The position numbers and the translations under genes are program-made. A DNA stretch of 64,000 nt from a virus: positions 1-64,000 of the IMG/VR virus record IMGVR_UViG_3300009034_000013; one strand, 5' to 3'. The notes beneath the pieces are model-generated. The model ran no database searches. It was not told the origin of the DNA and worked only from the letters and a program-made list of their open reading frames with translations. Positions 1-60,655 of the stretch are shown here, in pieces; position 1 is the first letter of the stretch; the number at the start of each line of letters is the position of its first letter.

Positions 1-313
1 AAGTTAGTAATGAAGTTAGTAATGAAGTTAGTGATAAAGTTAGGAATGTAGTTTGGAATGAAGTTAGTGATAAAGTTAGTAATGAAGTTAGTAATGAAGT
101 TAGGAATAAAGTTAGTGATAAAGTTAGTAATGAAGTTTGGAATGCAGTTAGGAATGAAGTTAGTGATAAAGTTTGGAATGAAGTTAGTAATGAAGTTAGT
201 AATGAAGTTAGTGATAAAGTTAGTAATGAAGTTAGGAATGAAGTTTGGAATGTAGTTAGTGATAAAGTTTGGAATGTAGTTAGTGATAAAGTTTGGAATG
301 TAGTTAGTAATGA
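1..313 (+). repeat. 12-nt tandem repeat, about 26 imperfect copies
   Basis: Period is 12 nt with variants aagttagtaatg, aagttagtgata, aagttaggaatg, aagtttggaatg and tagttagtgata. The repeat keeps one frame (GTT AGT AAT GAA) open and continuous with the downstream DUF6745-like gene, so it is coding. Substitutions fall mainly at codon positions that swap S, R and W or E, K and V. Confidence 0.9.
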
Positions 314-38020: not shown

Positions 38021-38875
38021 ATGAATAGAAAAGAATTAAATGAAATTTTAAAATCACATAAAATGTGGTTAAACAATTCTGTAAACGGAAAAAAAGCTGA
38101 TTTATCAAATGCTAATTTATATAAAGCTAATCTAACAGATGTTAATCTATCACATGCTAATTTATTAAAAACTAATTTATCCTATGCAAATCTAATAGAC
38201 ACTAATTTATCAGGGGCTAATTTATCAAATGCTAATTTATATAAAACTGATCTATTAAGAACTAATTTATATATACCTAATTTATATGAAGCTAATTTAA
38301 CAGATGCTAATTTATATAAAGCTAATTTATATAAAGCTAATTTATCAGGGGCTAATTTATATAAAGCTGATCTATCCTATACTAATCTAACAGATGCTAA
38401 TTTATCAAGAGCCAATCTAACAGATGCTAATTTATCAAGAGCCAATCTAACAGATGCTAATTTATCTGGATGTAAAGGATTATTAAATCCAAAAGATTGG
38501 ATGAACAATAATTTTAAAAAAACAGAAAAAGGATATATCGTATATAAAGCAATTGGAGAAACATATTATAAAACCCCTAAATATTGGGAAATAAAAGAAG
38601 ATTCATATATAGAAGAAATATGTAATCAAAATAGAACTAATCCTGACGGATGTGGTATTAATTTTGCAACTAAGGATCGAGTACAAAATGAATTTAAAAA
38701 TAAAAAATATGATTTATGGGAATGTTTATTAGAATGGGAAGATTTAATCAATGTTTGTGTTCCCTATAATACTGATGGGGTAATAAGATGCAGAAGATTA
38801 AAACTTTTAAAAATAATAAATAAAGAAAATGAAATTGTCATGGAAGATAAGGAGAGAAAATGTTACAACAAATAA
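38021..38875 (+). CDS. pentapeptide repeat protein
   Basis: 284 aa. After a helical start (NEILKSHKMWL), about 24 copies of A-(N/D)-L-x-x form a right-handed beta helix (ANLYK, ANLSN, ANLTD). Some copies have T at the first place (TNLSY). The C-terminal ~110 residues form a domain (LNPKDWMNNNF, CRRLKLL) that resembles a domain following pentapeptide repeats in other phage proteins. Role unknown. Confidence 0.8.
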   Translation: MNRKELNEILKSHKMWLNNSVNGKKADLSNANLYKANLTDVNLSHANLLKTNLSYANLIDTNLSGANLSNANLYKTDLLRTNLYIPNLYEANLTDANLYKANLYKANLSGANLYKADLSYTNLTDANLSRANLTDANLSRANLTDANLSGCKGLLNPKDWMNNNFKKTEKGYIVYKAIGETYYKTPKYWEIKEDSYIEEICNQNRTNPDGCGINFATKDRVQNEFKNKKYDLWECLLEWEDLINVCVPYNTDGVIRCRRLKLLKIINKENEIVMEDKERKCYNK

Positions 38876-57214: not shown

Positions 57215-58823
57215 AATAGTTAAATATGAGAATAAAGAATTGAAAATAAAATTTAATTCTGAAGATAAAACAGAATTTTATAATATTCTTAATAATGTAA
57301 AAACATTATATGGCAGACAATTTCATTCTAATTCAAGAACATGGATAGCTCCTCCTACAAAAGAAAATATAGAATCACTTGCAAAATTTGGTTTTGATAT
57401 GGATGAATCTGTATTTATACTTTTTGAAAAGAAAAAAGAAAAAGATTTTTCTAAAATAAAATTGAAAAAAAAATTATCAAAAGAATTTTATCCTTTTCAA
57501 ATAGATGGCATAAAGTTTTTGGAAAGTAGAAAAGGTAATGGATTGATAGCTGATGCTATGGGTTTGGGAAAAACAATACAGGTATTAGGTTATTTTATAA
57601 TCCATCCAGAATTAAAACCCGTTTTAATAGTTTGTCCTGCTTCTGTAAAATTGAATTGGAAAAGAGAGATTGAAAAATGGACAGATTATAAAGATGAAGA
57701 TGTAAATATTTTATCAGGGAAAACTCCTTATAATACTACATTATCTTGTTTTTATATTATTAATTATGATATTTTAGACAGTTGGAAAGAAGTTTTAATT
57801 GAGAAAAAGTTTGCTATAATACTGTCTGATGAATGTCAATATATTTCTAATGGTCGATCTTTGAGGACAGAAGCATTTAAAAAAATAGCAAGGAAAGTGG
57901 ATAAAAGAATATTTCTGTCAGGTACACCAATAAGAAATAGTCCAAGAGAATTCTTTACAGTTCTGAATCTTTTAAATAAAAAATGTTTTCCTAATGAGTA
58001 TAAATATCTATATAGATTTTGCAATCCTAAATATAATGGTTTTGGCTGGCAGTTTAAAGGGGTAACAAATTGGAAAGAATTACATAATATTATTCAACCT
58101 CTTATGATTAGAAGAGAGAAAAAAGAAGTACTAAAGGATTTACCAGAAAAACGAAAAATAGTTGTACCACTTGAATGTTCAAAATTAGAATATGAAAAAT
58201 ATTTGGATGCTATTGAGAATATAAAGGAATGGGCAGGTGAGGATGAAAAGAAAAGTATAGTTGAAATAAAAAATAGAATGGAATTTATTTCTGGTCTTGC
58301 TTATGGAGCAAAAAGGAATTCAGTTATAAGTTGGATTAAAGATTATATTTCTACTGGAGAAAAATTAGTTGTATTTGGATATCACATTAAAGTATTAGAT
58401 GATATTGAAGCCGCTTTTTCAAAAGTGAAGACTGTTAGAATAGATGGTAGTGTAAAATCTGATGATAGACAAGGATTAGTTGATCAATTTCAAAATGATT
58501 CAGAAACAAAATTATTCATAGGACAGATAAAAGCAGCTGGAATTGGTATAACTTTGACAGCTGCTTCTGCTACTTGTTTTTTGGAATTTTCATGGACACC
58601 AGCAGATCATGAGCAAGCTGAGGATAGAGTTCATAGAATTGGGCAAAAGGCAGATTCGGTATCTGCTTATTATTTGATTGGGGAAGGGACTCTGGAAAAA
58701 GATATTGTAAAATTATTGCAAAGTAAACATGATACAATTAGTAAAGTGATAGATGGAAAGGAGAATGAAAATTTTTTTAAAAAGGATATTTTAATTGAAA
58801 TATTTAATGGTTTGAAATTATAA
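57207..58823 (+). CDS. SNF2-family helicase (SMARCAL1-like)
   Basis: 538 aa. Motif I DAMGLGKT, motif II SDECQY, motif III LSGTPIRNSP, motif V AAGIGITLTAAS and motif VI EQAEDRVHRIGQ are all present. The N-terminal ~85 residues (FHSNSRTWIAPPTKENIESL) match the HARP-like region of SMARCAL1-type annealing helicases. It would reshape forks or recombination intermediates. Confidence 0.9.
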   Translation: MNKIVKYENKELKIKFNSEDKTEFYNILNNVKTLYGRQFHSNSRTWIAPPTKENIESLAKFGFDMDESVFILFEKKKEKDFSKIKLKKKLSKEFYPFQIDGIKFLESRKGNGLIADAMGLGKTIQVLGYFIIHPELKPVLIVCPASVKLNWKREIEKWTDYKDEDVNILSGKTPYNTTLSCFYIINYDILDSWKEVLIEKKFAIILSDECQYISNGRSLRTEAFKKIARKVDKRIFLSGTPIRNSPREFFTVLNLLNKKCFPNEYKYLYRFCNPKYNGFGWQFKGVTNWKELHNIIQPLMIRREKKEVLKDLPEKRKIVVPLECSKLEYEKYLDAIENIKEWAGEDEKKSIVEIKNRMEFISGLAYGAKRNSVISWIKDYISTGEKLVVFGYHIKVLDDIEAAFSKVKTVRIDGSVKSDDRQGLVDQFQNDSETKLFIGQIKAAGIGITLTAASATCFLEFSWTPADHEQAEDRVHRIGQKADSVSAYYLIGEGTLEKDIVKLLQSKHDTISKVIDGKENENFFKKDILIEIFNGLKL

Positions 58824-58846
58824 TGTAAATAAGAATCTGATGAGTA

Positions 58847-58946
58847 GAGTAAACCAAAGATAAAGAATGAGTTATATAGTGAAAGTAAACCAATAAAAGA
58901 GAGCGAGCCAGGCCGAGTGAGTAAACCAGCGCATGAGAGCGTATTT
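58847..58946 (+). repeat. array A: alternating 10-nt repeats with 8-nt spacers
   Basis: Strict 18-nt phase. GAGTAAACCA 58847-58856, GAATGAGTTA 58865-58874, AAGTAAACCA 58883-58892, GAGCGAGCCA 58901-58910, GAGTAAACCA 58919-58928, closing unit GAGCGTATTT 58937-58946. The 8-nt spacers are all different (aagataaa, tatagtga, ataaaaga, ggccgagt, gcgcatga). Two repeat types alternate: R1 GAGCGAGCCA and R2 GAGTAAACCA. It lies between the helicase stop and the ParB-like gene. Confidence 0.85.
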
Positions 58947-58996
58947 TTGTAAATGATCATTATATAATGATTAAATAATTTTATAGGGGATATCCG

Positions 58997-59686
58997 ATGG
59001 ATACTACAAAAAAATTAAAAGTTGGGGAATTGATCCTTGACTGGAATTTATGGCCACGTTATAAGGTGGAATTTTTAGATTCTACGAATATAACAAGAAT
59101 GAAACAAGCTATAAAAGCTGGGTTGAAACTTCCGTCTATTATAGTTAATAAAGCTGATTATAGAATAATAGATGGTTTTCACAGAGTAAAAGTTTATAGA
59201 GATTTATTTGGTGAAGAGCATGATATCACTGTTAAATTGAGAGAATTTAAAAATGATGCAGAAATGTTTATGGAATCTGCCAGACTAAATTCTGTTCATG
59301 GATTACCTTTAAGCCCACAAGATAAAGCTCATGTGATTTTAAGAGCAAGACGATTTAAATATCCTTTTCCAGTTATTGCACAAATAATAGGAATGGATGA
59401 AGATACTTTAAAAAAGTTTTATAAATCAAGAATAGCAAAAACTAAAAAAGGAGAAACTTTAGTTTTGGCGAATGGTGCTTCTGATTTAAGTGATTTGGAT
59501 AGACCATTAACAAATAATGAAGAAATACATGCAAGATCGGCTAATGGATGTAAAGCTTCTGTTAATATAGCTTTATTGTTATATGCTTTAAAAGCTGATA
59601 ATGTTAAACTAACAGAAAAAACAGTGTCAAATCTTATACAACTGAAAGAAGAAATAATAAGGATTTTAAAAAAGGCAGGTGTATAA
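58997..59686 (+). CDS. ParB/Srx-like nuclease-domain protein
   Basis: 229 aa, AGGGGAT upstream. LKVGELILDWNLWPRYKV and VNKADYRIIDGFHRVKVYRD (51-70), with DGFHR, form a ParB-N/sulfiredoxin-type domain. GLPLSPQDKAHVILRARRF and FPVIAQIIGMDEDTL look like the HTH part. Such phage proteins bind DNA and may cleave or use NTPs. It sits between array A and the IS110-like gene, in a TAATG junction with the latter. Confidence 0.75.
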   Translation: MDTTKKLKVGELILDWNLWPRYKVEFLDSTNITRMKQAIKAGLKLPSIIVNKADYRIIDGFHRVKVYRDLFGEEHDITVKLREFKNDAEMFMESARLNSVHGLPLSPQDKAHVILRARRFKYPFPVIAQIIGMDEDTLKKFYKSRIAKTKKGETLVLANGASDLSDLDRPLTNNEEIHARSANGCKASVNIALLLYALKADNVKLTEKTVSNLIQLKEEIIRILKKAGV

Positions 59687-60480
59687 TGTTAAAAGATAAA
59701 AAAGTTGAGAATTCACTGAAAATATTGATAAGACAATATTATGATTATAGTAATGAAAGAATAGCTATGGATGGAAGATTAGGAATTAAGAAAGATGGGG
59801 AATTAAAGAAGAAAACTCCTGATAGAGATGAAATAATGTTGGCTTATTTATACACAAGAAGAAAAGAAATAATAACTGTGGAGAAAGAAATTGAAAAAGA
59901 AATCAGAAAAGAAGTGAACATACATACTCTGTGGAAAGGATTTTTCGAAGATGTTATAGGAGTGGGCCCAATAATGGCAGCGGTAATTATCACTGAATTT
60001 GATATTAAAAAAGCTAATACAGTTTCAAAATTATGGGCTTTTGCAGGGATAAATCCTGGTATAGTATTTGGGAAAACTGGAAAACTTGGTAATATAAAAA
60101 CCTCTAATATTTTGATAAGACAAGATAAAAAAACAAAAGGATTTTTATGTCCATATAATCAGTTTTTAAAGTGTAGATTGTTAGGTGTTTTGGCAGGAAG
60201 TTTTTTAAAAGCATCATCCCCATATAGTAAGTTTTACTATGATTATCGTTTTAGATTGGTGTCCTTAACAGATGAGGAAAAAGAAAAAAGAGGATTATGT
60301 AAGTCAAAAAATCCAACCGATAAAAATAAACCATATGCTAGTCATATAAATAACAGAGCTAAAAGATATATGATAAAGATGTTTTTGAAAGATTTATATG
60401 TTGCGTGGAGGACGTTAGAAGGATTACCAGTTAGAGATCCATATGCTGATGAATATTTGAATAGAAAACATGCTGGATAA
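59686..60480 (+). CDS. IS110-like (Transposase_20 domain) protein without RuvC domain
   Basis: 264 aa. GVGPIMAAVIITEFDI (92-107) and SKLWAFAGINPG (114-125) are the helix-hairpin-helix core of the IS110 C-terminal domain; basic RAKRYMIKMFLKDLYVAWR follows. IS110 recombinases begin with a DEDD RuvC-like domain of ~150 aa, absent here: the first 80 residues are a charged helical stretch. So it is probably a domesticated DNA- or RNA-guided binder, not a full transposase. Array B starts 2 nt after its stop. Confidence 0.7.
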   Translation: MLKDKKVENSLKILIRQYYDYSNERIAMDGRLGIKKDGELKKKTPDRDEIMLAYLYTRRKEIITVEKEIEKEIRKEVNIHTLWKGFFEDVIGVGPIMAAVIITEFDIKKANTVSKLWAFAGINPGIVFGKTGKLGNIKTSNILIRQDKKTKGFLCPYNQFLKCRLLGVLAGSFLKASSPYSKFYYDYRFRLVSLTDEEKEKRGLCKSKNPTDKNKPYASHINNRAKRYMIKMFLKDLYVAWRTLEGLPVRDPYADEYLNRKHAG

Positions 60481-60482
60481 TT

Positions 60483-60600
60483 GAGCGAGCTACAAATAAG
60501 GAGTAAACCATTGTTCTTGAGCGAGCCAGGAGATTTGAGTAAACCAAGAAAATAGAGCGAGTCAAGGGAAGAGAGAAAACCATCTCTATAGAACGTATTA
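60483..60600 (+). repeat. array B: alternating 10-nt repeats with 8-nt spacers
   Basis: R1 GAGCGAGCTA 60483-60492, R2 GAGTAAACCA 60501-60510, R1 60519-60528, R2 60537-60546, R1 GAGCGAGTCA 60555-60564, R2 GAGAAAACCA 60573-60582, closing unit GAACGTATTA 60591-60600. Every spacer is exactly 8 nt and different (caaataag, ttgttctt, ggagattt, agaaaata, agggaaga, tctctata). Same repeats and same type of closing unit (GARCGTATTW) as array A. Confidence 0.9.
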
Positions 60601-60627
60601 AAAAGGCAGGATAAAAAAACCATGCCT

Positions 60628-60655
60628 AATTTGAAAGTTTTTTTCAAATTTTGTG
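60628..60655 (+). terminator. hairpin after array B
   Basis: AATTTGAA pairs with TTCAAATT (about 60628-60650) with a T-rich loop and TTT after it. Just upstream AGGCAGG/CCATGCCT (60604-60627) forms another imperfect stem. Could end the array B transcript. Confidence 0.45.

What the first reader, a model, noticed from the sequence alone, without database searches (positions are those of the whole stretch)
58847..60600. Two phased arrays of alternating 10-nt repeats with 8-nt variable spacers flank a ParB-like and an IS110-like gene
Seen directly: R1 (GAGCGAGCCA) and R2 (GAGTAAACCA) alternate with exactly 8 nt between them, six to seven units per side, each array ending in GARCGTATTW. All spacers differ, so these are neither simple tandem repeats nor ordinary iterons, and the 8-nt spacers are far shorter than CRISPR spacers. 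Both arrays point the same way and tightly bracket two genes: a ParB/Srx-type protein and a protein with only the C-terminal IS110 domain. IS110 enzymes use structured RNAs with short guide loops, so the spacers may be guides, binding-site discriminators or a copy-number-variable centromere. This is my best candidate for an undescribed system.
Basis: partly seen in the sequence, partly recalled or inferred. Interest (0 to 1): 0.93.

Follow-up and report, generated by a model that had tools for sequence, protein, structure and literature searches.

The report
Phage TIGR-TasA guide-RNA locus with ParB
This stretch of a phage genome encodes a TIGR-TasA system, a recently published RNA-guided DNA-binding system in which pairs of 8-letter guide sequences steer a small nuclease-free protein to DNA, together with its known ParB-like partner gene; it is a real and well-formed example but not a new kind of system.

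Summary
Two arrays of alternating 10-nt repeats (GAGCGAGCCA / GAGTAAACCA) with 8-nt unique spacers, in 18-nt phase, flank a ParB-like gene and an IS110-like gene. This is a TIGR-TasA locus with the tasParB partner, both published by Faure et al. 2025 (PMC12045711). The "IS110-like" protein passes NCBI's curated TIGR-Tas model (135.6 bits, cut-off 100) and fails the IS110 model (24 bits, cut-off 140). Its family profile hits only TasR and TasH in the PDB, and its predicted fold matches TasH/TasR best. GAGCGAGCCA is the edge repeat, GAGTAAACCA the loop repeat, and the terminal GAGCG/GAACG the expected 3'-truncated edge. The TasH array of Salicola phage CGphi29, tested in that paper, has nearly the same repeats. 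tasParB sits just upstream in 12 of 44 tasA loci. New here: 459 guide pairs from 25 phage contigs show no self-targeting beyond shuffled pairing, and no convincing cross-phage target. Targets and the role of TasParB remain open. Most likely working: tigRNA-guided DNA binding without cutting, with TasParB as effector, against non-self DNA; that functional step is inferred.

The parts
58795..58824 (+). promoter-like site TTGAAA-18-TATAAT just upstream of array 1
   Evidence: 11 of 12 consensus matches; the region as a whole has no excess of such sites over shuffles (14 found, 15.4 expected), so only its position is suggestive
58839..58941 (+). TIGR array 1: three dual-spacer units (A/B spacers GATGAGTA/AAGATAAA, TATAGTGA/ATAAAAGA, GGCCGAGT/GCGCATGA), ending in truncated edge repeat GAGCG
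   Evidence: sequence; 18-nt phase
58945..58988 (+). A+T-rich hairpin after array 1, possible terminator or attenuator
   Evidence: fold z-score -1.36, weak
58997..59686 (+). tasParB, ParB-like protein, 229 aa
   Evidence: phrog_1033 ParB-like partition protein E 8.6e-13; AlphaFold2 mean pLDDT 92; Foldseek best hits are ParB, Noc and KorB, probability 1.00
59686..60480 (+). tasA, nuclease-free Nop-domain Tas protein, 264 aa; its ATG overlaps the tasParB stop codon
   Evidence: NF052498.1 TIGR_Tas_endo 135.6 bits, cut-off 100; PDB profile hits TasR and TasH only; Foldseek best hits TasH and TasR
60483..60595 (+). TIGR array 2: three dual-spacer units (CAAATAAG/TTGTTCTT, GGAGATTT/AGAAAATA, AGGGAAGA/TCTCTATA), ending in truncated edge repeat GAACG
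   Evidence: sequence; 18-nt phase
60604..60650 (+). two consecutive hairpins followed by a T-rich stretch, likely terminator of array 2
   Evidence: fold MFE -17.8 kcal/mol, z-score -1.33, weak; position matches the terminator described after TIGR arrays; the simple terminator scan did not call it

Best explanation
A TIGR-TasA locus with its TasParB partner. Both arrays are transcribed on the + strand and cut in the middle of each edge repeat (GAGCG|AGCCA) into 36-nt tigRNAs: AGCCA - spacer A (8) - GAGTAAACCA - spacer B (8) - GAGCG. A TasA dimer binds one tigRNA through the GAG (box D-like) and CCA (box C) ends of the two repeats. It then unwinds DNA in which spacer A pairs with one strand and spacer B with the other. 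TasA has no nuclease, so it binds and probably bends DNA without cutting it. TasParB, translated from the same operon, most likely acts as the effector at or around the bound site, for example as a ParB-type clamp or roadblock that silences or destabilises a competing element. Shown here: the anatomy, family membership, conservation, and lack of detectable self-targeting. Shown in the literature for relatives: processing and dual-strand targeting. Inferred: the TasParB role and the non-self target. The confidence given is for the identity as TIGR-TasA-TasParB; for the TasParB effector role alone it would be about 0.35.
For: Tas membership: NCBIfam TIGR_Tas_endo 135.6 bits over a cut-off of 100, IS110 model 24 bits under a cut-off of 140; PDB profile hits only 9mty, TasR (9e-23), and TasH (8.3e-21); AlphaFold2 model best matches TasH and TasR. 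Array: alternating edge/loop repeats, 36-nt unit, truncated terminal edge. Direct comparison: the Salicola CGphi29 TasH locus has edge AAGCGAGCCA and loop AAGACAACCA at the same 36-nt period, downstream of the gene. The published description fits point by point, tasParB included. Linkage: 41 of 43 loci pulled by repeat pattern alone carry arrays; in 23 of the 25 with tasA in the fetched locus it lies within 40 nt; 40 of the 48 records searched hold a tasA match. RNA-level constraint: repeat pair 3-8 stays paired through G-U (29 edges) and U-A loops dominating the arrays of two contigs. No self-targeting: real guide pairs match shuffled pairings.
Against: No expression, processing or binding data exist for this locus. 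The diverged first edge repeat (GAATGAGTTA) and short arrays could mean partial decay of array 1. No natural target was found, so non-self targeting rests on absence of self hits. The TasParB effector role is a guess from operon structure and fold. The wobble asymmetry that would mark the + strand as the RNA is significant for one repeat pair only (edge 3-8, p = 0.0003), not for edge 4-7 or loop 3-8.
Confidence: 0.95

Rival explanations
1. The spacers guide TasA-TasParB to the phage's own genome, making an RNA-programmed centromere or a self-regulator.
For: ParB proteins normally mark their own replicon; TasParB has a clear ParB-like fold.
Against: 459 guide pairs in 25 contigs: matches to the own contig in either order and with gaps of 0-2 equal those of shuffled A/B pairings, with no exact match. 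In the window's own 83.8-kb genome no site beats chance.
Confidence: 0.07
2. A remnant or variant of an IS110-type mobile element whose repeats are bridge-RNA-like loops.
For: Weak Pfam Transposase_20 match, 18.6 bits; PHROG family labelled transposase; real fold relationship to the IS621 recombinase.
Against: Below Pfam's cut-off (21.3) and far below NCBI's IS110 cut-off; no N-terminal catalytic domain; all listed TasH/TasR chains rank above the IS110-type ones; arrays instead of one bridge RNA.
Confidence: 0.02
3. DNA-level partition site: the repeats are ParB binding sites (parS-like iterons) and the spacers are filler.
For: Repeats flank a parB-like gene on both sides.
Against: The same repeats occur beside tasA in many phages without any parB-like gene; repeats show changes that preserve a base pair within one strand; the Salicola relative's array is the tigRNA source tested in the paper.
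Confidence: 0.02
4. A decaying TIGR locus no longer functional in this phage.
For: Array 1 begins with diverged repeats; only six guides.
Against: Both genes are open and overlap as in a translationally coupled operon; key repeat positions are kept; the diverged edge keeps its 3-8 pair as A-U.
Confidence: 0.1

Closest known systems
TIGR-TasA with tasParB (Faure et al. [quoted passage not shown]
   Same: Lone Nop protein, parB-like gene in operon, dual-repeat arrays of 10-nt edge and loop repeats upstream and downstream
   Different: Nothing in kind. This is a further phage example with 8-nt spacers and only three units per array; target unknown in both
SpTIGR-TasH of Salicola phage CGphi29
   Same: 36-nt unit, 8-nt spacers, edge AAGCGAGCCA versus GAGCGAGCCA, loop AAGACAACCA versus GAGTAAACCA; homologous Nop domain
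   Different: TasH carries an HNH nuclease; the protein here has none, and here a parB-like gene stands directly upstream
IS110/IS621 RNA-guided recombinase
   Same: Shared Nop-type RNA-binding fold
   Different: No catalytic N-terminal domain, no bridge RNA or element ends seen; fails the IS110 family cut-off
ParB, Noc and KorB
   Same: Predicted ParB-type fold of TasParB
   Different: No ParA partner gene among the immediate neighbours examined; no Pfam ParB match in the window protein and only marginal ones in its relatives

Membership tests
TIGR-Tas (dual-repeat type) | Nop-domain Tas protein | tested here: met
   NF052498.1 above cut-off; PDB profile and Foldseek hits TasR/TasH
TIGR-Tas (dual-repeat type) | Array of two alternating 8-12-nt repeats with short variable spacers next to the gene | tested here: met
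   10-nt repeats, 8-nt spacers, 18-nt phase; most described spacers are 9 nt, but the paper gives 16 nt of spacer per unit for SpTIGR
TIGR-Tas (dual-repeat type) | Array ends in a 3'-truncated edge repeat | tested here: met
   GAGCG and GAACG ends
TIGR-Tas (dual-repeat type) | Rho-independent terminator after the array | tested here: inconclusive
   Hairpins follow both arrays but fold only weakly better than shuffles, and the terminator scan did not call them
TIGR-Tas (dual-repeat type) | Box C/D-like repeat ends that pair and covary | tested here: met
   Pair 3-8 kept as G-C, G-U, U-A or A-U across contigs; second pair 4-7 not clearly supported
TIGR-Tas (dual-repeat type) | Processing into 36-nt tigRNAs bound by Tas | not testable with these tools
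   Needs small-RNA sequencing
TIGR-Tas (dual-repeat type) | Tandem-spacer targeting of both DNA strands | not testable with these tools
   Biochemistry needed; no natural target found
TasA subtype | No HNH or RuvC nuclease domain | tested here: met
   264 aa; no such domain in Pfam; family profile aligns to TasR only from residue 136 and to TasH only from residue 83
TasParB operon | parB-like gene in operon with tasA | tested here: met
   ATG of tasA overlaps the stop of tasParB; homologues next to 12 of 44 tasA genes
IS110 transposase | Full-length IS110 family protein with N-terminal catalytic domain | tested here: not met
   24 bits against a cut-off of 140, matching profile 173-262 of 343 only
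CRISPR array | Single 25-36-nt repeat with spacers of similar size | tested here: not met
   Two 10-nt repeats, 8-nt spacers

The most novel reading that the evidence does not exclude
TasA guided by tigRNAs loads TasParB as a programmable ParB-type clamp that spreads from a chosen site on foreign DNA and silences or evicts it: RNA-guided silencing by a partition protein.
Probability: 0.25. Interest if true: 0.8.

Novelty: new member of a known kind. Interest (0 to 1): 0.3.

Why it matters
The natural targets of TIGR systems and the role of TasParB are stated open questions in the founding paper. This locus is a compact six-guide example with both genes intact. The shuffled-pairing test here argues that TIGR-Tas arrays in phages do not aim at their own genomes, which narrows the field towards non-self targets.

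Tried and rejected
Rfam search of the window: nothing. Self-target search in the own genome and in 25 contigs: nothing above shuffled pairing. Cross-phage target search: guide order A-rc(B) with a 1-nt gap gave 33 near matches against 18.1 +/- 4.3 shuffled, but no exact match, among 20 configurations tried; an independent 1.3-Mb set gave 15 against 9.6 +/- 3.3, so not confirmed. Exact scan of IMG/VR for the one G+C-rich guide pair gave at least 120 stretches against 32 for the reversed order; inspection showed G+C-rich codon coincidence (peptides AEFMR and AHELG in unrelated genes), so rejected as a target signal. Spacer turnover: the only near relative, G001, is the same phage (99.997%) with identical spacers, so uninformative. 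Host identification: no near phage record and no tRNA. No relative in plasmids. IS110 remnant, CRISPR and iteron readings rejected as above. PADLOC: no match.

Full report
What is there. Two arrays of alternating 10-nt repeats with exactly 8-nt unique spacers lie at 58839-58941 and 60483-60595, on the same strand as, and tightly around, two overlapping genes at 58997-59686 and 59686-60480. In-phase chains of six repeats do not occur by chance: 30 Markov windows gave at most two by the same rule. Each array holds three dual-spacer units and ends in a truncated repeat (GAGCG, GAACG).

What it is. The founding paper, Faure et al. 2025, Science, PMC12045711, describes TIGR arrays as alternating edge and loop repeats of 8-12 nt with short spacers, starting and ending in truncated edge repeats, followed by a terminator, next to a Nop-domain Tas protein. 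It also describes a parB-like gene, tasParB, in operon with nuclease-free tasA, with 10-nt-repeat arrays upstream, downstream or between the genes. The window matches this: edge GAGCGAGCCA, loop GAGTAAACCA, truncated edge GAGCG. Only the terminator is uncertain.

Protein test. The second gene scores 135.6 bits with NCBI's TIGR-Tas model (cut-off 100) and 24 bits with the IS110 transposase model (cut-off 140). A profile of 15 homologues finds only two distinct sequences in the whole PDB: TasR (9mty, E 9e-23) and TasH (E 8.3e-21). The AlphaFold2 model (mean pLDDT 80; segments 125-136 and 147-153 are unreliable) matches TasH and TasR best and IS621-type recombinases next. No HNH or RuvC domain is present, so it is TasA. 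The first gene folds confidently (pLDDT 92) as a ParB/Noc/KorB-like protein (TM-scores are modest, 0.3-0.5), although sequence models see it only weakly.

Array test against a tested relative. The Salicola phage CGphi29 locus, whose TasH and array were studied in the paper, reads AAGCGAGCCA (edge) and AAGACAACCA (loop) at 36-nt period directly downstream of its Tas gene. The sequenced Microcystis phage Mvi-JY20 has a TasA-like gene annotated only as hypothetical, with a 36-nt-period array and a terminator-like hairpin behind it.

Conservation. All 25 phage contigs examined carry chains of edge and loop repeats that alternate with few exceptions, 459 guide pairs in all. Searching IMG/VR with the repeat pattern alone brought 43 loci, 41 with arrays of at least three in-phase repeats; where tasA lay in the locus the array was within 40 nt in 23 of 25 cases. 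tasParB homologues were found next to 12 of 44 non-redundant tasA genes, directly upstream of tasA in the loci listed, confined to one half of the tree but with at least three gains or losses. Repeat positions 3 and 8 stay paired through G-U and U-A substitutions, the latter dominating the arrays of two contigs (G005 and G007), which fits a transcribed, box C/D-like RNA.

Targets. From the paper's cleavage rule and overhang I infer that a target reads spacer A followed by the reverse complement of spacer B; I tested both orders with gaps of 0-2. In the own genomes no order exceeded shuffled A/B pairing and no exact match occurred. Between phages one configuration rose above its control but had no exact match and did not replicate in an independent set. 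A scan of IMG/VR with one guide pair gave only codon-usage coincidences. The spacers therefore most likely aim at non-self DNA that is not in these sets; this is an inference from absence.

Mechanism. Transcription, cutting within edge repeats to 36-nt tigRNAs, binding by a TasA dimer and pairing with both DNA strands are carried over from the tested relatives. That binding occurs without cutting follows from the missing nuclease. That TasParB is the effector is inference from its constant position next to tasA and its fold.

Verdict. A sound new member of a known kind. It is not an undescribed system. The interest lies in the still open question of what TasA-TasParB targets and does.

Noticed in passing
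window 1-313 and G000:C1 83265-83838 (L060): A 24-nt-period tandem repeat (AAGTTAGGAATGAAGTTAGTAATG) spans both ends of the 83.8-kb contig; a near-identical contig (G001) runs across that junction, so the phage genome is probably circular or circularly permuted.
   Followed up: partly
window 38092-38466: Tandem repeats of 30/45-nt period rich in 'GCTAATTTA', as in pentapeptide-repeat coding sequence.
   Followed up: no
L158 2719-3850 (PP438412.1, Microcystis phage Mvi-JY20): A sequenced, named phage carries a TasA-like gene annotated hypothetical (XAI95461.1) with a 36-nt-period TIGR array (edge ATGCGAGCC, loop ACGAAACCC) and a terminator-like hairpin directly downstream.
   Followed up: partly
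window 59686-60480 (phrog_4285 and NF052498.1): PHROGs labels this family 'transposase, integration and excision' and NCBIfam labels it 'endonuclease'; for nuclease-free TasA both names mislead.
   Followed up: no
L026 159-366, L034 279-558 and 4578-4875, L044 1435-1732, L047 1712-1883: Long arrays of the same repeats with no recognisable Tas gene in the fetched stretch; orphan arrays, a divergent Tas protein, or contig ends.
   Followed up: partly
25 contigs: Spacer G+C varies less than phage genome G+C (0.26-0.59; r = 0.68) and is lower than the genome in most G+C-rich phages; may bear on where spacers come from.
   Followed up: no
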